This document shows, piece by piece, positions 12,680 to 53,747 of a DNA stretch of 64,000 nucleotides. Within the stretch, counting starts at the first letter, position 1, and the number at the start of each line of letters is the position of its first letter. Source of the DNA: Polytrichum commune (taxonomy: Eukaryota; Streptophyta; Polytrichopsida; Polytrichales; Polytrichaceae); contig OX485806.1 of NCBI GenBank assembly GCA_950295325.1, positions 21,516,001-21,580,000 on the forward strand, read 5' to 3'. Position numbers and translations under genes: made by a program. The notes beneath the pieces were generated by a model, which saw nothing but the letters and a program-made list of their open reading frames with translations, was not told where the DNA came from and did not search any database.

Positions 12680-13471
12680 CCTATTTGTTTTTTTGGTCTA
12701 CCAGCTGCAATATTTGTAATTTGGGGGCGTGTAATATACCGTTGGAAAGGTCTTGAAAATACCTTTCCAACGGTATATTACATGCCCCAAAATGTTTAAA
12801 AACTACAGTTGCAAAAGAAAAAAGAAAAATACGTAAGTCGTTTAGTGACTGTAGATCAAGGTGGTCAAAAGAAGCGCAATGGGAAATCTTCTAACATTAA
12901 TTAAAAGAATTGAAATTTAGTGTTGAGCAAGGTTGGGTGGTAACAACATTAGATATAATCAAACACTAAATATCCTATTTAGTGTAGTGACAACACAAGG
13001 TACATGTCACATGTACAAATTGAATCGCTCATTTTTTTGTAAAAATTGTTGTGAGAAGATTTGCAAGCCACATCTTCGACACATTTAACAAGAAGTAAAG
13101 ACAGTTGAAGCCCAAGAGATGACAAGAGAATAATCAAACTTTAAGGGGAAAAGAAGAAAAAACTAAGTGACAAGATAAGTGAAGGCATGTGTAGGCAAGT
13201 GAAGGCAAATTGAAGTCAAAAAAATGGTCAAACTTCATTTTTTCCCAAAACTGCCCTTTTCAGGCTTATATTAAAAAAATCGGCACATCCATTTCTTGCC
13301 GCATGGTCATTCCTCTTGGTCCACATTCGGTTTACACCTAGTGAGGGGCCCAACAGCTTTGTAAATCAATTTTTTAAGAACTCGGACCATGAAATGTAGA
13401 CCATGAACTCGTACCGTGGAATAAGGCATCTTCCGTGGGACGAGTTCATGGTCTATGGTGTAAACCGCCCC
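12680..13471 (-). mobile_element. Truncated PIF/Harbinger-type element
   Basis: This stretch is colinear in inverse orientation with 52355-53230. Shared parts are the hairpin arm at 12721, a run of As and Gs near 12800, a half M1 MITE at about 12890-12995, and the paired GACCATGAA blocks. It ends with GTGTAAACCGCCCC then TTA, matching the TIR and TAA target site of the intact copy. The other end is missing, so homology fades near 12680. Confidence 0.7.
12721..12790. repeat. Long near-perfect hairpin
   Basis: Arms of about 30 bp (…TATACCGTTGGAAAGGT and ACCTTTCCAACGGTATA…) flank a 9-base loop. The sister copy at about 53185-53222 has only one arm. Confidence 0.9.
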
Positions 13472-15954: not shown

Positions 15955-16326
15955 CGTAGTTTCCATTAAAATGAGAGTATGTTAAGCTGGGAAATCGACT
16001 CATTTAGGCCGACTCAACCTAAATTGACAACATATTGTCCTCATTTAGGTCGACTCAACCTTAATTGACAAACATAATTGTCCTCATTTAGGTCGACTCA
16101 ACCTAAATTGACAACATAATGTCCTCATTTAGGTCGACTCAACCTTAATTGACAAACATAATTGTCCTCATTTAGGTTGACTCAACCTAAATTGACAACA
16201 TAATGTCCTCATTTAGGTCGACTCAACCTAAATTGACTAACATAATTGTCCTCATTTAAGTCGACTCAACCTAAATGAGTCGATATCCCAGCTTAAAATA
16301 CTCTCATTTTAATGAAAACTACACGT
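15955..16326. mobile_element. TIR element with an internal 41/43-bp array
   Basis: About 50 bp at the left end (CATTAAAATGAGAGTA, AAGCTGGG, ATCGACTCATTTAGG) reappears inverted at the right end. The interior is seven units of CATTTAGGTCGACTCAACC type at 16001, 16042, 16085, 16126, 16169, 16210 and 16253, spaced alternately 41 and 43 bp. The true repeat is thus an 84-bp dimer. There is no coding sequence. Confidence 0.8.
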
Positions 16327-16424: not shown

Positions 16425-17050
16425 TATCGTGTTGTAAGGGATTGTAAGGTATGCATGTGGTTTTAATTGGACACGTATATTTTATTGGTGTATGGTTAGG
16501 TGAGCATCAAAGAACCAACTCATGAAGATGCATGTTTGGAAGGGATTGGATTATGACTTCAAAACTTGTCAAGCATTTCACAACCAATAGTGAACACAAT
16601 TAAGAAATTCAATTGAAAAATCAACAAACGTGCACTTTTGATAACCATAAGTAAATTAAAAAAAAGGTCTGATTCTTTATTTATTTTTTGGTCCATATTT
16701 CATCATAAATTTACAAACAACATAAGTTTGAAAACGTAAACCTTATCAATAGAAGATGAAGAACAAGAAAATTAAAAAAAAATTAAAAAAATAACACCCA
16801 CATATCTTAGTGCTCAAATGTACGGGATAGGCCCTTCTGACTATCTTACATTGTAAAGATGATTTGGTGAAATCAGTAAAACCTTGTTTTCATCCTATCT
16901 CTAGAATCCTCAACATTCAACACGAAACTTCTCTTGGCCAACTTTATATTCAAGGTCAAAGTGCCTCCAAAAGTGGCATGGCCTCTTGACATTCACGGGC
17001 GGGAACCAATGTGGGTCCTCTATGAGTGTACAAGATTTGGATCAAAGACT
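16425..17050. other. Gap: dispersed repeat fragment
   Basis: No gene. About 16470-16640 is another copy of the GATTGGATTATG-marked dispersed family. The remainder is AT-rich and unrecognised. Confidence 0.4.
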
Positions 17051-17519
17051 GCAAGTGCACTTGCATTTTCCTCTAAATTCCTTACATGCTTATCTAGAAA
17101 TTGCAAGTGCACTTGCATTTTCCTCTAAATTCCTTACATGCTTATCTAGAAATTGCAAGTGCACTTGCATTTTCCTCTAAATTCCTTACATGCTTATCTA
17201 GAAATTGCAAGTGCACTTGCATTTTCCTCTAAATTCCTTACATGCTTATCTAGAAATTGCAAGTGCACTTGCATTTTCCTCTAAATTCCTCACATGCTTA
17301 TCTAGAAATTGCAAGTGCACTTGCATTTTCCTCTAAATTCCTTACATGCTTATCTAGAAATTGCAAGTGCACTTGCATTTTCCTCTAAATTCCTCACATG
17401 CTTATCTAGAAATTGCAAGTGCACTTGCATTTTCCTCTAAATTCCTTACATGCTTATCTAGAAATTGCAAGCACACTTGCACTTTCCTTTAAATTCCTTA
17501 CATATTTATCTAGAAATCA
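17051..17519. repeat. 52-bp satellite, about 9 units, palindromic core
   Basis: Units start at 17051, 17103, 17155 and so on, every 52 bp, and are almost identical until the last, which is mutated (GCAAGCACACTTGC). Each holds the perfect palindrome TGCAAGTGCACTTGCA, then TTTTCCTCTAAATTCCT and CTTATCTAGAAAT. Near identity implies recent expansion. The frames through it are incidental. Confidence 0.95.
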
Positions 17520-18709: not shown

Positions 18710-19721
18710 GAATGGCTAGATTAAAAAAATCATTGGTTGTTGTCTATATATTTGTAATTGAGCTATGAGTTAATATCTATTATTTAATGGTATTTTTTGT
18801 TAGATATTATGGATGTAAGTTATTTTATTTGTTTTTTGGGGTAACACTTTCAAAGAGTCAATGAGCATAGATTTGTGACAAATTTGGATAAATCTTCAAC
18901 TATTTCATTTTATTATCTTATGATTTTAGTACGATATTCTCTTACATTGGAATTATGAAGCCCTAGAGGTTGGACTCTTTATACCATATATAAACTAATG
19001 TGAGTGTAAAAAAACGTATTATTTGAGGCATTAACAAACATAGTATTTAAGGGAAAGGTAATTTTCTTTTTTCTTCAGTGCGTACATTCAAAAAGGCTAT
19101 TAAGAATTTTGAAGTAAAGGTAGATGTACAAGAGGGGGCCCTACAATTTAAGAAATTTTATGACAATAGATGTCATAGTTCGTCTGATCTACATTTCCAT
19201 CCATTATTATTATTGCCTTAGCTTCAGTGCTATGTGTTTTAGGGTCAGATTACTATGAGTTACATTGTATGAATAAAAAAAAATGTTCAATGAGTTTCTC
19301 AATGGAATGTGAAAGTATATTATATATGTAATAAAATAACTTTGTAATTTATTGAATTTTTGGTGTATATAGTGGAGGAATTTATTCACATTAATCAAAT
19401 AGCATAGTATAAATACATGAGTCCATTTTTGAGCCTACCTTATGTATTCCTCTTTTTTTACTTATAATGTAACTAGAAATATTGATGGATGAATGAACCT
19501 TTTAACCACATGTATCAACATGTAAGCAGAGGATGACGGGAGTTAGACAGCTCCCGATGGAAGATCTTTGCATTGGAGTTAGACACCTCCCTGTGGAAGA
19601 TCTTTGCGTTGGAGGTAGACAACTCGAACTGGAAGATATGAATCAAAGTTAGACAACTCCCAACGGATGGATGTTATTCCTTGGAGCTAGATAACTCTCC
19701 ATGGATAGATGAACGAGCCAC

Positions 19722-19776
19722 TGGGGGCCGAGGCCCCCCCGTTGGTGGGAGGAGGAGGCCCCTCGTAGGAGAGGCG
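19722..19776 (-). repeat. GC-rich inverted repeat, right arm
   Basis: Inverted partner of 18660-18709, about 1.06 kb away. It may mark the ends of one inserted unit or be two copies of a small GC-rich element. Confidence 0.65.
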
Positions 19777-19905
19777 GTTCATCTGAAACGCAACGAGGGT
19801 ATGCGGGTGTGAAGTTAAGGCCGAAGTCAATCATGATCTGCTCAATAAGGGGGGGGGGATGACCAAAAAAAAAAAAAAAACTTAGATTGATATCTTTGAG
19901 GTATA

Positions 19906-19975
19906 ATCGAGGAGGAGGCCTAGATTTCAGGAGAGGCCAGCATTTCGGGAGGCGGCTCTAGGCCTCCTCCTCGAT
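19906..19975. repeat. Foldback with 19-bp perfect arms
   Basis: ATCGAGGAGGAGGCCTAGA and its exact reverse complement flank a 32-base loop containing GGAGAGGCC. It sits inside the hairpin-module region and shares the GAGGAGGAGGCC word with the block at 19722. Confidence 0.9.
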
Positions 19976-21025
19976 CAAGTTGGAATTAGACAGTTCCAAC
20001 AGAAGAATGGATGATGAATCAAGTTGGAATTAGACAATTCCAAATAGAAGAATGGTTGATAAATCAAGTTGAAATTATACAATTCGAAGTAGAAGAATGG
20101 ATGATGAATCAAGTTGGAATAGATAATTCCAACTAGAAGAATGGTTGATGAATCAAGTTGAAATTAGACAGTTCCAACTAGAAGAATGGATGATGAATAA
20201 AGTTGGAACTAGAAAATTCCAACTGGAAGAATATAATTGAGTAAAAGATGGAAGAAGGTTCTAGAAGAACCAAAGATAGAGTTATGAATAGAATACTTTT
20301 ATTATATTTGGAAATAAAAAACAAAAGTAGTGCCTTTGGCATAAGAGGAAGCTCGGGGGAGGAGAGTGGAACTTTTGTCTCTCTCCTATGCTTGGGTGGC
20401 TGAGCTTAGGCCAATATACAATTGGTCTATGATTGTACTTAGAAGTTATGAAGAAAATAAACTAAGTATCTTCAACTCACCATTTTGATTCATAGTTGTT
20501 ATTATGAAGATTGTGAAAGTCAATGGCAAACCTATGGGAGGGTTATTACATTAATCTATAAATCTCTAAGATATAAGAGGTTTTATTTAAGTCACCCAAA
20601 CACGTCGTTTAGGTTTCCAATGAAGAGTCCACCCCCTAGGTATAAAGCTCATGAAATTTTTTAAGCATTTGAAATATATCCATGTCATCTAGAAATAATC
20701 AGTCTCAGTCTTGTTAATAAGTGTGTTGTTGTCAAAAATGCATGTTACGTATGATTTTAATATAACCAAACAATGATTTCATTTGACATTATTACTAATA
20801 CATTATATATAAAACTAGAATATATATTATGATCATTTTTTTTGAGACTCTTCATTGGATGAAATTCTATTTGCACTTAATGCAAATTTTCAAATCAAAT
20901 CTTATAGAAACTTTGTTGGAAAATTTGCCTAGCATCATTTCAGATGAGAGACCCAAATATTTCACATAATGATAAAATATGAAGCTTTAATCTTTGGTGA
21001 CTTACTTCCATTGCAACAAAGGTGT

Positions 21026-21620
21026 CACGTTCCTCTTTTACACAAGAATAATACAAGCATGAATGTATATGAATCACCAATATTGAGGACTTTCAAACTT
21101 TGTACATTACAAAAGCTTTACAACCTAATTACAATATTTCAATTGCTATGAGCTTGAAGCACTTGACCATAGGAGAGACTGAAAAATTCTCTCCTCTCCC
21201 GAGCATTCTTTCTGCCAAAACATTACTTTTACTTTCTATTTCTCTATAGATTTCTTATCATAGCTCTATCTTTGGTTATACTATGAAGCTTTTCTCTTTT
21301 GGCTCAATTAATTCCACTAGTTGAAATTGTCTAAGTCCAACTGAATTTATTCATTGATAGTTGTCTAGCTCCAATGAATAACTTGCATCTACTAGAAGTT
21401 GTCTAACTCCATGGCATATCTTCTAGTTGGAGTTGTCTAATTCCAAATCAAAGATCTTCCAAAAAGAGGTGTCTAACTCCCAATTGGAGCTATCTAAGTT
21501 CAAATCAAAGATCTTTGATCGGAAGTTGTCCAACTCTCATGCATAATTCCTTCATGGGTTGTCTAGCCCTTGTGCATCATTCTCTCTTGGGTTGTCTAAC
21601 CCAATTCATTCTTTGGAGTT
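21026..21620 (-). mobile_element. Gypsy-type LTR, inverted copy
   Basis: It begins TGTCACGTTCC, which is the reverse complement of the LTR end at 24129. It is colinear, inverted, with 22128-22740 plus 24069-24129. It contains about ten hairpin modules at 21330-21620 (for example GGGTTGTCTAACCC and GGAGTTGTGTGACTCC). It is absent from the paralogous segment near 35020. Confidence 0.65.
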
Positions 21621-21719
21621 GTGTGACTCCAAACACCATCGGCTCATATGCCAAGTAGAGAAAATTACTGTTAGACTTTCTTTCTTGCATAATCCAACAC
21701 TAAATCTTTTAATCCGAGT

Positions 21720-22110
21720 AAAAGGGTTTAATGCTGGATTATGGAAGAAAGAAAGACTCACCATATTTCGCAGTACTTATCATCCTAGGACACATGGTCA
21801 AACTAAACAAACAAATAAAAACATCAAGTATATGCTTCAAATGTATGTTGGTAAGAGATAATAATCTTGGGATGAGTGGTTAAATCTTTGTCGATTTGGA
21901 CATAACCAAAGATTGTATAGTTGTAGTTTTGGTTATAGTCCATTATTTGCTTTATATGCACAAGATTGTAAAACTCCAATAACTATTTTAACCCCAAACT
22001 CAATGTTTGAAAGTGTTAATCAAATGGTTCGAGAGATGAATGAAGTCATTGAATTTGTTGGGTTGAGCATGCGGAGTGCTCAAGATAGAAACAAAACATT
22101 GTGCGGATAA
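21720..22110 (+). pseudogene. Ty3/gypsy integrase fragment
   Basis: The frame encodes the C-terminal part of a gypsy integrase core and beyond: STYHPRTHGQTKQTNKNIKY (family form YHPQTDGQT), MYVGKR, then WDEWLNLC, FGYSPLFALY, CKTPIT and a coiled tail around QMVREMNEV and SAQDRNKTL. Integrase inserts retroelement DNA. Two consecutive TAA codons (21859-21864) interrupt the frame, and the catalytic first half, reverse transcriptase and RNase H are missing. It is a decayed remnant lying between an inverted and a direct LTR copy. Confidence 0.85.
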
Positions 22111-22986
22111 GAATGAAAGTTGTTTGATTGGTGTCAGACAACTCCGAATTGTTTAGGGAAGTTAGACAACCGAAGCGAGAATGGTGCACAAGGGGTAGAC
22201 AACCCATGATGGAATTGTGTATGGGAGTTGGACAACTTTCGATTGAAGATCTTTGATTTGGAGTTAGACAGCGCCAACTGGGAGTTAGACGCCTCCAACT
22301 AGAAGATAATATTGGAGTTAGACAACTTCCAACAGATGATTGTTATTAATTGGAGCTAGACGATTGTGAATGAATAAATCTAGTTGGAATTAGACAATTC
22401 CATCTAGAAAAATAGATGAATGCATCAAGTTGTAATTAAACAATTCAAATAAAAAAAGTGGATGATTGGATAAAGTTGAAGTTAGACAGTTTCAACTAGT
22501 GGATTGTGATTGAGCCAAAACATAGAAGATTCATAGTGAAACTAAAGCTATGATTAGAAAACATGTACTATGTGAGAAATAAATAAATAAAAGTAGTGTT
22601 TTCGCATAAAAGGGAGCTCGGGGAGAGGAGAGAGGATCGTTTTGTCTCTCCTATGATCGGGTGGTTCAAGCTCATAGCAATCACAATATTTTAATTAGGT
22701 TGTAAGACTTTTGTAATGTACAAAGTTTGAAAGTCCTCAATATTGGTCTCGGGGGGGGGGGGGGGGGCACTGGCGAAAAACGTAGGAACTACGTGCGATA
22801 AAATATAGGGTCTTGTATAAAAATTTGGCGTAAAATTTGTAAATTATTAGAGGTAGTATAGGGTGCTTTGGGATTGTGAAACATGATTATATGTAATATA
22901 GCATTTGACAAAACATGATTAAATTACCTAAGTGGTACATATAAAATAGCATGGAGAAAAAACGATAGTTTCAAAAATTAAATACT

Positions 22987-34152: not shown

Positions 34153-36640
34153 GAGGGGTATTAATGTACATGGTATACATAAGGGGAAAGGTATTTTTTT
34201 CTTCCCTCTAGTTTGTACATTCAACAATGCTATTATGAATTTTGAAGCAATGGTAGATGTACAAAAGGGGCCCTAAATATTAGGATTTATAAAAACGAAG
34301 TCATAGATTCATCTAATTTATGTTTTCATCCATTATTATTGTCACCTTAGCTTCAATGACATGTGTTTTAGGGTTTGATTACTATGAGTTACGTCATATG
34401 GATGAAAAAGTGTTCAATGACTTTCTCATTGGAAAGTGAAAGTAGATTGTGAATGTAGTAAAAACCAATCTATTTTATGATTCTTTTGTGTATGTAGTGG
34501 AGGCATTTATCACATTAATTGAAAAGCACGATGTAAATACATTTATCCATTTTCCAAACTACTGTTAGTGTGAATGCATTTGTTTTTATCTATAAATCTC
34601 GTGATATACAAGGGGTTTTATTTTGTAATCACCCATGCACTTCATTTAGGTTTCCAACGAAGAGTCCACCCCTTAGGTATGAAGCTCATGAAGGATGTTG
34701 AACATTCTAATTGTATACAAGTGGTGTAGAAATTATCAGTCACAATCTTGTTGATAAGTGCATGTTGTTGTTAGAAATGCTTTGTTACGTATGATTTTAA
34801 TATAATCAAATGATAATTTCATGAGACACTATCACCGATACATTGCGTATAAAATTGGAATATATGTTATTTATTTATTTGAGACTCTTCAATGATGAAA
34901 ATTCTATTTACATTTTATGAAAAATCAAATTAAATAATATACAAACGAGGAAGCCAAAAAAATTCACATCTTGATACAATATGAAGCTTTCATTGCTTTT
35001 GACTTACTTCCATCACAACGGGGATGAGTTGGGGCTTATCCTTTGGAGTTGTTGAAAAGCCTCTTAACATCAAGAGGGTGATACCATTCTTGAAGGCATA
35101 TTTGTCATAGCAATCACCTAGAGGTTACCTCTTACCAAAGGTACTTTCCATGAAATGGACTAGCTAAGGGAGGCACAATACATGTGAAGACCGACAATGG
35201 AAATGAAAGGTTGTCCTCTAATGTCATAGACAAGCCTTTACACATGTGAGGATGTCAACTTTCAAGGTACTTTGTCATAGCTTTTGACACCTTCCACAAG
35301 CTATGGTCATTTGGTAGCTAGGGAGCTTGATTGTGATCCATAATGACCTTTCGGAGACCCTAGGAGAGATCATTGTGCGAAGACATTAAAAACCATGTGA
35401 GTATAAACATAGATTCTTATTTAGACATGAAGGGTCATACTTTAAATATTTTGTAGTTCCAACATGTAGACTAGTTAGTATAATGAGCATGTTATATAAA
35501 ATCGAGATAATGTGTAAAAGCCATGGATTGAAAACATTGAAACCAATGACCATACATTGAGATCATGAAAACAATCAACCATACATTGAGATCACGGTTT
35601 GCAACCTTCCTCCAGTAGCATTCAATACATGCCTTGATTCTTTTTTTCACAAATGGATGAAACAACTGTTGGTAAGATTGTGCCATCTTCTCAAAACATC
35701 TAGTGTCCTTGAGCCTTCATTGAAGACGAGTGGAAGTAGAGGATGTTTCTACATACTACACTAAAAATGATATTTAGTGTTTGATACACTAAAAATGATA
35801 TTTAGTGTTTGATACACTAAAAATGATATTTAGTGTTTGATACACTAAATACAAACGCATACACTAAATGTCAATAATGCTATGAAAGTAAGTAACATTA
35901 AATGTAAACTCAAACACTAAATATCAACTATGGTAATATGTGGACGTTACATGTTTGAATTTAGTGTTAGTAAAAACATGAAATCCACGTTTCACAAGAA
36001 GGGAGGTGGCAGTAGGGAAGATAGCGGCACATTTATGTCTAACAGGAGATGTCAAGGAATTGAAAATTAGTGTTGAGCAGGGTAAGGTGGTAACAACATT
36101 AAATATAATCAAACACCAAATATCCTTTTAAGTATAGTGACCTTCCCATGTAGGGACGTCAAATCCAAGTGTGCCATAAGTTACAAATCGTGAAATTCAA
36201 GCACAAGGTTCATGGCCTTCTAGCTTTCATCTTGTCCATGATTTCCAAGCTATGGAATCGTTGAAATTATATACGTGATTAATATGGAATTTGGGTTTTA
36301 GCGATTTGTAAAGATATCAGTTCGTATAAGGCTTGTGTGCTTATGTGACCGAAATAATTTTGTGAATGTCGTAATTTGGACATCCACAAAATTCGTTGGC
36401 AGGTACATTCTGCAACAAGAAGAAGCTGACAACAAGAAAGTTTGAGTCTCGTCTAGACATTGATGTCAATGCGAGCCCATGAAACAAGTTTTGGCTGATC
36501 TGGCCTGGTAATTGCCTCCACAAAATACGAATTGTCGAAAGACTATCAAATTTTCAGGTAGTCTTGGCATTGTAGACTGAATCCAAATGCTTCAACTATG
36601 GCATGATGTGACAATGAAAATGTGTGTACATCAAGAGGTG
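34153..36640 (+). repeat. Ancestral repeat segment, copy 2
   Basis: Colinear with the pieces of copy 1 (18835-25660) but without the LTR insertions. It continues after the 4.2-kb hAT insertion at 40841-40935 (ATGTGCAATGTC..., TCTTGAGGCTT). No coding sequence is recognised. Confidence 0.75.
35757..36140. mobile_element. MITE family M1 in copy 2
   Basis: It starts CTACACTAAAAATGATATTT with a threefold repeat of about 28 bp, contains the TAGTGTTGAGCA block and ends AAGTATAGTG. The corresponding site in copy 1 (about 25055) has no insertion. A TA target is suggested, but the exact ends are ambiguous because flank and TIR share TAGTG. Confidence 0.75.
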
Positions 36641-52354: not shown

Positions 52355-53747
52355 GGGCCGGTTTACACTATGGACCATGAAGTCAGATCATGGAAGAGGG
52401 CCTTTTTCGGTCCGAGTTCATGGTCGAACTTTCATTGTCCGACTTCTTAAAAAATTAGTTTTGAAAGTCTTGGGCCCCTCACTAGGTGTAAACTAAATGT
52501 GGACCAAGAAGAACGACCATGCACCAAAAATGAATGTGTTGATTCTTTTAATACATGCCCAAAAAGGGTAGTTTTGAAAAAAAAATCAAGTTTCACCATT
52601 CTCTTCTCTTCCCTTCTTGTTACATGTGTCGAAGATGTGGCTTGTAAATCTTCTCACAACAATTTTTACAAAAAAAATTGAGCGATTTAATTTGTACATG
52701 CTCAATGTATTTTACATGTGACATGTACCTTGTGTTGTCACTACACTAAATAGGATATTTTGTGTTTGATTATATTTAATGTTGTTACCACCGTACCTTG
52801 CTCAACACTAATTTTCAATTCTTTGATAATTAGTGTTAGAATATTTGCTACAAGATATGTTGAAAAACTCTTTTTATCATTGTTTTTTTTCCAATATCCT
52901 TACTAAAATTAAAACATGTAACTTCCACATATTACCATAGTTGATATTTAAAATCTGAGTTTATATTTAATGTTACTTACTTTAATAGGGTTATTGATAT
53001 TTAGTGTATGTGTTTGTATTTAGTGTATCAAACACTAAATATACTATTTAGTGTAGTAGAAAACTATGCAGAAAAAAAAACCGCAATCGGTTTCCCATTG
53101 CGGTTCTTTTGACCACCCTGATCTACAGTCGCTAAACGACTACAACTTTTTCTTTTTTCTTTTGCAACTGTATTGTTTAAATTTAAACAAGACCTTTCCA
53201 ACGGTATATTACAAGCCCCCAAATTCCAAATATATCAATTGATAGACCAAAAAAACACATTTGCACTCTAATTCTTGAGTTGTAGATGTCCCACATTGTT
53301 TGATGAAACATGTGGGAGCATGGAAGAAATGGTATATCTTATGGGCTATGATGTGATCTAGGCACAAAGAGGTTGGACTTGGTCCTCAAGATTCATTACA
53401 TCATATACATGTTGAAAAGTGTGCCTTGTGAGGCTTACCTAGTCATTTGGAAAGCCTCCAACAAAAACTTCATTAAAAAAGTATTATAGCGGCACTTCTT
53501 TGCCATGGGCCCCTGCCTTTTCCTACCATAGCACCTCTCTTGCCTGTCTCACCGCAAAACCCGTTAGACCATGTCAGCGCATTTATTAGGCCTTGAAAAT
53601 TGTATTTTGGGGACCTCGACCTCCATGGTACCTCTGCCATTTTTTTTCTTAGTGTAAACCAAGGTGGTCCTAAGACGAGTTCAACAACCAATCAATGCTC
53701 TTACAACGCCCTGGTCGGACTTCATGGTCCATAATGTAAACCAACCC
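52355..53747. mobile_element. PIF/Harbinger-type element, 1.39 kb, TAA TSD
   Basis: The TIRs are GGGCCGGTTTACACTATGG and CCATAATGTAAACCAACCC, extended by ACCATGAAGTC. TAA flanks both sides (52352-52354, 53748-53750). The target CCCTAAGTCTC is intact in copy A near 32190. A 3-bp TAA/TTA duplication with GG-starting TIRs is the Harbinger/Tourist signature. No transposase was seen. An M1 MITE is nested at 52741-53056. GATGTCCCACATTG at about 53287 recalls LTR starts. Confidence 0.85.
52741..53056. mobile_element. MITE family M1 nested in the Harbinger element
   Basis: CTACACTAAATAGGATATTT at the left and AATATACTATTTAGTGTAG at the right are inverted repeats. Half of the same MITE, at the same relative position, is left in the truncated sister element near 12890-12995, so the insertion predates the spread of the Harbinger family. 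Confidence 0.8.

What the first reader, a model, noticed from the sequence alone, without database searches (positions are those of the whole stretch)
19530..22505. Arrays of hairpin modules with compensated stems in gypsy LTRs
Over 25 modules share a TAGAC/GTCTA loop, while many stems change on both sides: GGAGTT/AACTCC, GGAATT/AATTCC, GGGTT/AACCC, GGGAG/CTCCC, GTTGAA/TTCAAC. Keeping pairing while the sequence drifts suggests the fold or symmetry itself is used, perhaps as an RNA structure or repeated binding site. Three arrays occur, one inverted (21330-21620), each tied to the same LTR sequence. I do not know a described retroelement with this.
Basis: partly seen in the sequence, partly recalled or inferred. 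Interest (0 to 1): 0.7.

Follow-up and report, generated by a model that had tools for sequence, protein, structure and literature searches.

The report
Palindrome arrays in retrotransposon LTRs
A family of plant jumping genes carries in its control region about ten short mirror-like DNA boxes whose two halves have drifted together, much like control boxes already described in another kind of plant jumping gene.

Summary
The three window arrays have 25 cores within one mismatch of TTAGACAA; 13 of 25 have at least 4 of 5 arm pairs, against 2 of 84 such cores elsewhere in the window. The genome has 681 GGANTTAGACAANTCC sites, the reversed pattern 2. The arrays lie inside ~955-bp LTRs of a Ty3/gypsy chromovirus with young copies.

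Covariation is real between module types (109 of 140 pairs, permuted mean 84.0, 0 of 20,000) and stands out from slid registers. Across copies of the same module it is not above background (1.46% vs 1.27%). So pairing was kept while the element replicated, not after insertion. G·U and A·C mismatches are equally common (106:107; genome-wide 20:28): nothing points to a sense-RNA fold.

Best reading: a cis-regulatory array of ~20-bp palindromic boxes acting as DNA, like Sirevirus RM boxes (PMC2829016, passages) but in a gypsy element. In 13 of 19 loci of one clade a heat-shock-type site follows the array. The strongest rival is template switching during reverse transcription. New variant of a known kind.

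The parts
19535..20232 (+). Array 1: palindromic modules in an LTR of the B-type lineage (36-bp and ~45-bp spaced blocks)
   Evidence: LTR flank match and tree place of W1
20254..20271 (+). Heat-shock-type element GAAGGTTCTAGAAGAACC after array 1
   Evidence: name recalled and from PMC3907296 passages
20236..20480 (+). LTR sequence downstream of array 1, with a TATA-like stretch near 20302 (by eye)
21317..21620 (-). Array 2: inverted copy of the module array
21030..21316 (-). LTR sequence downstream of array 2 (bounds approximate)
21720..22110 (+). Broken pol remnant upstream of array 3; reads like integrase by eye only, Pfam found no family
22125..22500 (+). Array 3: A-type module array
22506..22750 (+). 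LTR sequence downstream of array 3

Best explanation
The modules are the cis-regulatory (U3) array of a Ty3/gypsy chromovirus: up to 12 detected head-to-tail imperfect palindromes of about 20 bp, general form TTGGARTTAGACAAYTCCAA, upstream of the promoter. They most likely act as DNA, as dyad-symmetric sites for a host factor stacked like an enhancer. The array gains and loses whole units. Arm symmetry is kept only while the element replicates; inserted copies decay freely. Shown: place in LTRs, one whole-unit difference in a young LTR pair, between-slot covariation, strand symmetry of mismatches, decay after insertion. Inferred: that the region is U3, that a protein binds it, and that selection rather than a copying bias keeps the symmetry.
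For: LTR pair L021/L022 differs by 3 of the 774 bases they share (the 3' LTR is cut short by another insertion); RT (PF00078) lies between; a primer-site-like TTGGTATCAGAGC follows the 5' LTR and a purine tract precedes the 3' LTR (motif names recalled). SH3_Tf2-1 and chromodomain PF00385 (33.5 bits, cut-off 25.1) end just before the 3' LTR. One member (L066) of the RT hits with a 1539-aa open frame (8 such hits) carries the same array. LTR pair L024/L023 differs by 1 base and one 46-bp gap, one module unit. Strand symmetry: 106 G·U, 107 A·C single mismatches; 20 and 28 genome-wide. Decay: no clear within-slot excess. Heat-shock-type site 46-92 bp after the last detected core in 13 of 19 B loci; TATA-like ACTATATG about 75 bp further in 7 of 7 copies printed. 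L074, another RT-linked flank, has 8 TTCTAGAA just before GTATATATAAG. HSF binding to such a site in an LTR is shown for ONSEN (PMC3907296, passages).
Against: A dimer with two fixed half-sites does not by itself make the halves covary, and covariation at positions 2-7 remains. The asymmetric centre AGAC is conserved too. Slots are related by duplication, so permutation values overstate independence; the register test only partly cures this, and pairs 4, 6 and 7 do not stand out there (ranks 119, 190, 113 of 496). No factor, transcript start or expression was tested.
Confidence: 0.5

Rival explanations
1. Copying bias: during reverse transcription the nascent strand folds back on the tetraloop hairpin and copies its own arm, so mismatches are mended in one event and the loop is kept. 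Symmetry is then a by-product of the mutation process and needs no function.
For: Template switching can make and keep perfect stems while retaining the loop, and 4-nt loops are favoured (PMC8794818, passages); the centre here is the 4-nt AGAC. Some modules carry two adjacent double changes (L006 slot A5, L018 slot A4). A young LTR pair differs by one whole unit, so copying across the array is error-prone. Strand symmetry fits.
Against: Adjacent double changes were not tested against chance. The AGAC centre and GGA/TCC arm letters are also conserved, which a copying bias does not ask for. No event without a one-sided intermediate was shown.
Confidence: 0.22
2. RNA hairpins: the array folds in the element's transcript (3' end U3) and serves packaging, stability or protein binding.
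For: Strong folding of a young array (L021 z -8.3 sense); between-slot covariation. At clade level G·U looked a little commoner than A·C by eye.
Against: The antisense strand folds as well or better (z -10.0; window array 3 -3.7 and -3.4). G·U and A·C are equal among singles (106:107), among recurrent states (14:15) and genome-wide (20:28). No Rfam match in the arrays.
Confidence: 0.12
3. Plain descent: a founder palindrome was duplicated, two or three versions arose early, and the array is inherited; symmetry is not maintained.
For: Within slots, restoring double changes 26 of 1778 against 45 of 3553 in non-partner columns. The innermost G..C/A..T pair largely separates two module classes.
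Against: Covariation remains without the innermost pair (74 of 102 vs 58.6, 1 of 20,000) and inside one class (58 of 84 vs 45.0, 6 of 20,000); true register stands out.
Confidence: 0.1
4. Host-silencing feature: hairpins give rise to, or drift away from, small RNAs of the host, as proposed for maize Sirevirus palindromes.
For: Excess small RNAs over palindrome clusters in maize Sireviruses is reported in PMC10760457 (passages), citing Bousios 2016, which was not held.
Against: No small-RNA data here; stems of 3-13 pairs are short for hairpin-derived small RNAs (recalled).
Confidence: 0.06

Closest known systems
Sirevirus RM boxes (Ty1/copia; OPIE-2, PREM-2, HOPIE, Inga and others), PMC2829016 (abstract and passages)
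   Same: At least eight and up to 32 short palindromic boxes per element, most LTR copies in the upper half of the LTR, upstream of the TATA box; the sequence differs between families while symmetry stays
   Different: Those have a CGG-CCG core (except Tnd-1), mostly high identity between the copies of one element, and CpG islands; here the centre AGAC is fixed, arms differ between slots of one LTR, CpG is depleted (3 seen, 13.0 expected in L021), and the element is Ty3/gypsy
Tnt1 U3 BII boxes (tobacco, copia), PMC3316501 (passages)
   Same: Boxes in an LTR promoter said there to bind defence-induced factors
   Different: No palindrome or covarying arms in the passages seen; different superfamily
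ONSEN heat response element (Arabidopsis), PMC3907296 (passages)
   Same: Palindromic nTTCnnGAAn in the LTR; 13 of 19 B loci here have a three-unit site beside the array
   Different: The TAGAC modules themselves are not heat-shock elements
Template-switch maintenance of hairpins, PMC8794818 (passages)
   Same: Compensatory changes with the loop kept, 4-nt loops favoured
   Different: Studied in RNA genes, not LTR arrays

Membership tests
Ty3/gypsy chromovirus (element that carries the arrays) | Chromodomain behind the integrase at the pol C-terminus | tested here: met
   L022:2-412: SH3_Tf2-1 83.9 bits (cut-off 30), then Chromo 33.5 bits (cut-off 25.1)
Ty3/gypsy chromovirus (element that carries the arrays) | Reverse transcriptase between two near-identical LTRs | tested here: met
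   RT at C1:4189711-4190190 between L021 and L022, 3 differences in 774 shared bases
Ty3/gypsy chromovirus (element that carries the arrays) | Named clade (Tekay, CRM, Reina, Galadriel or other) | not tested
   no clade reference set at hand
Sirevirus RM boxes | Ty1/copia element | tested here: not met
   chromodomain after the integrase end; RT found by PF00078
Sirevirus RM boxes | Multi-copy palindromic boxes in the LTR | tested here: met
   2 to 12 detected cores per locus-strand, inside an LTR pair
Sirevirus RM boxes | CGG-CCG core | tested here: not met
   centre TTAGACAA, arms GGAG/CTCC or GGAA/TTCC
Sirevirus RM boxes | Boxes form CpG islands | tested here: not met
   CpG 3 vs 13.0, 7 vs 11.8 and 19 vs 31.1 expected
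Sirevirus RM boxes | Position just upstream of the promoter | tested here: inconclusive
   TATA-like ACTATATG after the array in 7 of 7 copies printed, 12 asked; no transcript start known
Heat-responsive LTR promoter | Heat-shock element in the LTR | tested here: met
   13 of 19 B loci; 0 of 22 A, 0 of 7 C, 0 of 4 D, searched within 160 nt after a module
Heat-responsive LTR promoter | Induction by heat through HSF | not testable with these tools
   no expression data
Described structured RNA family (Rfam 15) | Match reaching the family's gathering score | tested here: not met
   19400-22900: only two weak miRNA-precursor matches at 21670-21761, 34.1 of 94 and 29.5 of 117 bits, between arrays 2 and 3

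The most novel reading that the evidence does not exclude
In this genome dyad symmetry itself is what some LTRs are kept for. The TAGAC family has repeated modules with drifting arms; an unrelated gypsy family (1551-aa open frame) has seven different single-copy perfect hairpins in a 944-bp LTR against 0.63 in shuffles, fold z -10.7 and -7.8. The symmetry would act as extruded cruciforms or single-strand hairpins in transcription, reverse transcription or integration, with arm sequence free to drift.
Probability: 0.17. Interest if true: 0.7.

Novelty: new variant of a known kind. Interest (0 to 1): 0.42.

Why it matters
It extends palindromic LTR box arrays from copia Sireviruses to a gypsy chromovirus of what looks like a bryophyte, with much more arm diversity inside one LTR. 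That is a natural experiment on whether a factor or a polymerase reads the sequence or the symmetry. Young LTR pairs that differ by one whole unit would let unit turnover be counted per insertion, and the heat-shock-type site gives a simple induction test.

Tried and rejected
RNA-fold reading: looked for an excess of G·U over A·C mismatches; none. At clade level G·U looked a little commoner by eye, too few to count.

Within-slot covariation: a first count gave 44 double changes against 22.9 expected, which looked like selection; against non-partner columns it fell to 1.46% vs 1.27% for restoring and 0.79% vs 0.90% for non-restoring changes. Relative to single changes the partner columns stay slightly higher (0.078 vs 0.052 per single); I did not test that difference.

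Covariation in the other family's hairpins: no power. Of 43 matches 40 are given as 100% identical, and only 40 of 3946 candidates were scored; the arm-free pattern gave 109 sites, of which the 100 listed are nearly all invariant. One search, a misplaced pattern, showed diverged relatives of one hairpin, without obvious paired changes by eye.

Generality: of 8 other RT-downstream stretches (L067, L069-L075) 3 exceed all 40 shuffles in hairpin number (L072 5 vs max 4, L074 7 vs 4, L075 5 vs 3) and 5 do not. That these stretches are LTRs was not established. Of four non-LTR controls, L065_postLTR (0 vs mean 1.28), L066_postLTR (3 vs 1.45) and L021_gag (0 vs 0.63) are near shuffles; L022_post, another inserted element, is above the mean (3 vs 0.45, max 3).

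Literature: searches listed no paper that I could recognise, from titles and abstract starts, as describing such an array in a gypsy element; most subscription papers are not in the library and Bousios 2016 was not held. Of PMC10760457, PMC2829016, PMC8794818, PMC6911290, PMC3316501 and PMC3907296 I saw passages (abstract and outline too for PMC2829016), none whole. PMC6911290 reports a weak insertion preference for palindromes; not pursued.

Host: rbcL on a plastid contig is open, its best PDB match is 9chz, and an accD-like frame stands near it; bryophyte is my reading from recalled gene order. Seven contigs hold nearly all bases (lengths).

Rows dropped: L001 (the window itself) and L056 (no module cluster) from module counts, so 65 of 66 sources give clusters; 66 of 467 modules not assignable to a slot; 10 of 65 loci without enough flank left out of the tree, in which many forks are weakly supported.
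Full report
Setting. The window is C4:21516001-21580000 of a 408-Mb genome in 64 contigs, seven of them large. A plastid contig carries an open rbcL with an accD-like frame near it; best solved relative 9chz. I read this as a bryophyte, from recall.

Observation. Twenty-five cores within one mismatch of TTAGACAA lie in the three arrays, 13 of 25 with at least four of five arm pairs, against 2 of 84 such cores elsewhere in the window. The second array is the inverted form. The pattern GGANTTAGACAANTCC has 681 sites genome-wide against 2 for the pattern read backwards; in the first 100 listed, 90 have complementary letters at the two free places. Perfect hairpins (stem 8 or more) number 67 in the whole window against 5-17 in ten shuffles, many of them in unrelated tandem arrays.

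What carries it. I took 20 matches of array 3 (40 of 722 candidates were scored), the LTR regions of two elements and 40 further loci holding the exact pattern. Of 66 sources (63 loci and the three window arrays; L001, the window itself, left out) 65 give module clusters, all but L056: 467 modules, 375 distinct. Seven loci lacked the downstream LTR flank; 7 of 7 still match LTR sequence around the array. In L021 the array is in the middle of a ~955-bp LTR with TGTAA..TTACA ends (bounds by eye); a primer-site-like TTGGTATCAGAGC and, at L022, a purine tract border the inside (names recalled). RT lies between the two LTRs, and a chromodomain follows the integrase SH3 domain before the 3' LTR. The LTRs differ by 3 of 774 shared bases; the 3' LTR is cut short there. 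One member (L066) of the RT hits with a 1539-aa frame, 8, carries the same array. So this is a Ty3/gypsy chromovirus with recent activity. The window copies are old, broken relatives; array 3 follows what reads like a pol remnant by eye, though Pfam found no family in it.

Anatomy. Two main lineages share the scheme, A-type and B-type, with different slots in the 5' part; up to 12 cores are detected per LTR, 8 or 9 in the youngest. Spacing is mostly 21-39 bp in the 5' part and 46 bp in the 3' part. The general form is TTGGARTTAGACAAYTCCAA; stems run from 3 to 13 pairs. The two LTRs of L024/L023 differ by one base and one 46-bp gap: a whole unit was gained or lost at, or soon after, insertion.

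Covariation. Over 375 distinct modules the innermost arm pair is complementary in 77% against 48% when 3' arms are dealt anew; positions 2 and 4-7 also exceed the deal, position 3 only slightly, and beyond 7 there is little. With each of 20 slots counted once, 109 of 140 pairs are complementary against 84.0 +/- 4.1, 0 of 20,000. With 17 less redundant slots and without the innermost pair it is 74 of 102 against 58.6 +/- 3.4, 1 of 20,000; within the G..C class alone 58 of 84 against 45.0 +/- 3.3, 6 of 20,000. Slots are related by duplication, so these values overstate independence. As a control for relatedness all column pairs were scored: the true register averages 11.6, slid registers -6.2 to 2.8; partner against non-partner columns p = 0.0003. 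Of the single pairs the innermost (rank 2 of 496) and the fifth (rank 18) stand high, the second and third weakly (43, 54), and pairs 4, 6 and 7 do not (119, 190, 113).

Against the reading. Across copies of the same slot, double changes that restore pairing are 26 of 1778 cells, in non-partner columns of matching letters 45 of 3553. Inserted copies therefore decay much like neutral sequence. Two double changes do sit in clade states: the last slot, AGTTGG/CCAACT in clade D (4 modules) and, with ties, older B (5), to AATTGG/CCAATT in the two younger B groups (2 and 8); and slot B1, GGGAG/CTCCC to GAGAG/CTCTC in a clade of 2 loci. The youngest clade pairs somewhat better (mean 0.84; other clades 0.76-0.80). 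One young array folds much better than one old one (L021 z -8.3 and -10.0; window array 3 -3.7 and -3.4).

RNA or DNA. If the sense RNA fold were kept, G·U should outnumber A·C. Single mismatches are 106 and 107, states recurring three times or more 14 and 15, genome-wide at the innermost pair 20 and 28 of 681. Both strands fold about equally. The symmetry looks like a DNA property.

Regulatory context. In 13 of 19 B loci a three-unit heat-shock-type element (GAAGGTTCTAGAAGAACC or near) stands 46-92 bp after the last detected core; 0 of 22 A, 0 of 7 C and 0 of 4 D loci have it. A TATA-like ACTATATG follows about 75 bp on in 7 of 7 copies printed. Array 1 of the window has the element at 20254. 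Another RT-linked flank, L074, has eight TTCTAGAA in about 110 bp before GTATATATAAG, against 19 in 164,689 bases of the other loci. By analogy with ONSEN (PMC3907296, passages) this supports the U3 reading.

Generality. A second gypsy family (1551-aa open frame) has seven unrelated perfect hairpins in a 944-bp LTR against 0.63 in shuffles and z -10.7 and -7.8 on 20 shuffles. Of eight other RT-downstream stretches three exceed all shuffles and five do not. Palindrome-rich flanks are frequent here, not universal.

Comparison. Sirevirus RM boxes (PMC2829016, passages) are the nearest described thing: many palindromic boxes upstream of the TATA box in plant LTRs. Membership fails on superfamily, core and CpG. 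It most likely works like them but is not one of them. Template switching (PMC8794818, passages) is the strongest rival for how the arms stay symmetric and may act together with selection.

Verdict. A real, well-supported feature. The fold-of-RNA reading is not supported; a DNA-level palindromic cis-regulatory array is the best explanation at about even odds, its symmetry kept in the replicating lineage by selection, template switching or both.

Noticed in passing
802-1781 and 15999-16276: Two tandem arrays hold palindromes of one shape, GGTTTGGGTCGATCGACCCAAACC and (one unit) ATTTAGGTTGACTCAACCTAAAT, differing at symmetric places; an RT-linked flank (L075, reversed, 1955-1989) has a similar hairpin AAGTTTGGGTCGAGCA-TTT-TGCTCGACCCAAACTT.
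   Followed up: partly
17050-17517: 52-bp tandem repeat, about 9 copies, with the perfect palindrome TGCAAGTGCACTTGCA.
   Followed up: no
12963-12985, 35827-35851, 53017-53054: The palindrome ACACTAAATA/TATTTAGTGT recurs at three places; a 28-bp tandem array lies at 35757-35849.
   Followed up: no
12730-12782: 22-bp perfect stem with a 9-base loop, MITE-like.
   Followed up: no
21648-21783: 63-nt inverted repeat, 75% complementary, with sub-threshold miRNA-precursor matches on both strands.
   Followed up: no
19906-19975: 19-bp perfect inverted repeat ATCGAGGAGGAGGCCTAGA, arms 32 nt apart, between the 36-bp and 45-bp module blocks of array 1.
   Followed up: no
L024/L023 (G000 C1:40931700-40933600 and C1:40925300-40927000): The two LTRs of one young element differ by 1 base and one 46-bp gap, the size of one module unit.
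   Followed up: yes
L074 (G000 C6:25452900-25455400), reversed, 557-666: Eight TTCTAGAA heat-shock-type palindromes just before a TATA-like stretch in another RT-linked region.
   Followed up: partly
L065 (G000 C4:54080800-54083300), reversed, 407-1350: LTR of a very homogeneous gypsy family with seven unrelated perfect hairpins.
   Followed up: partly
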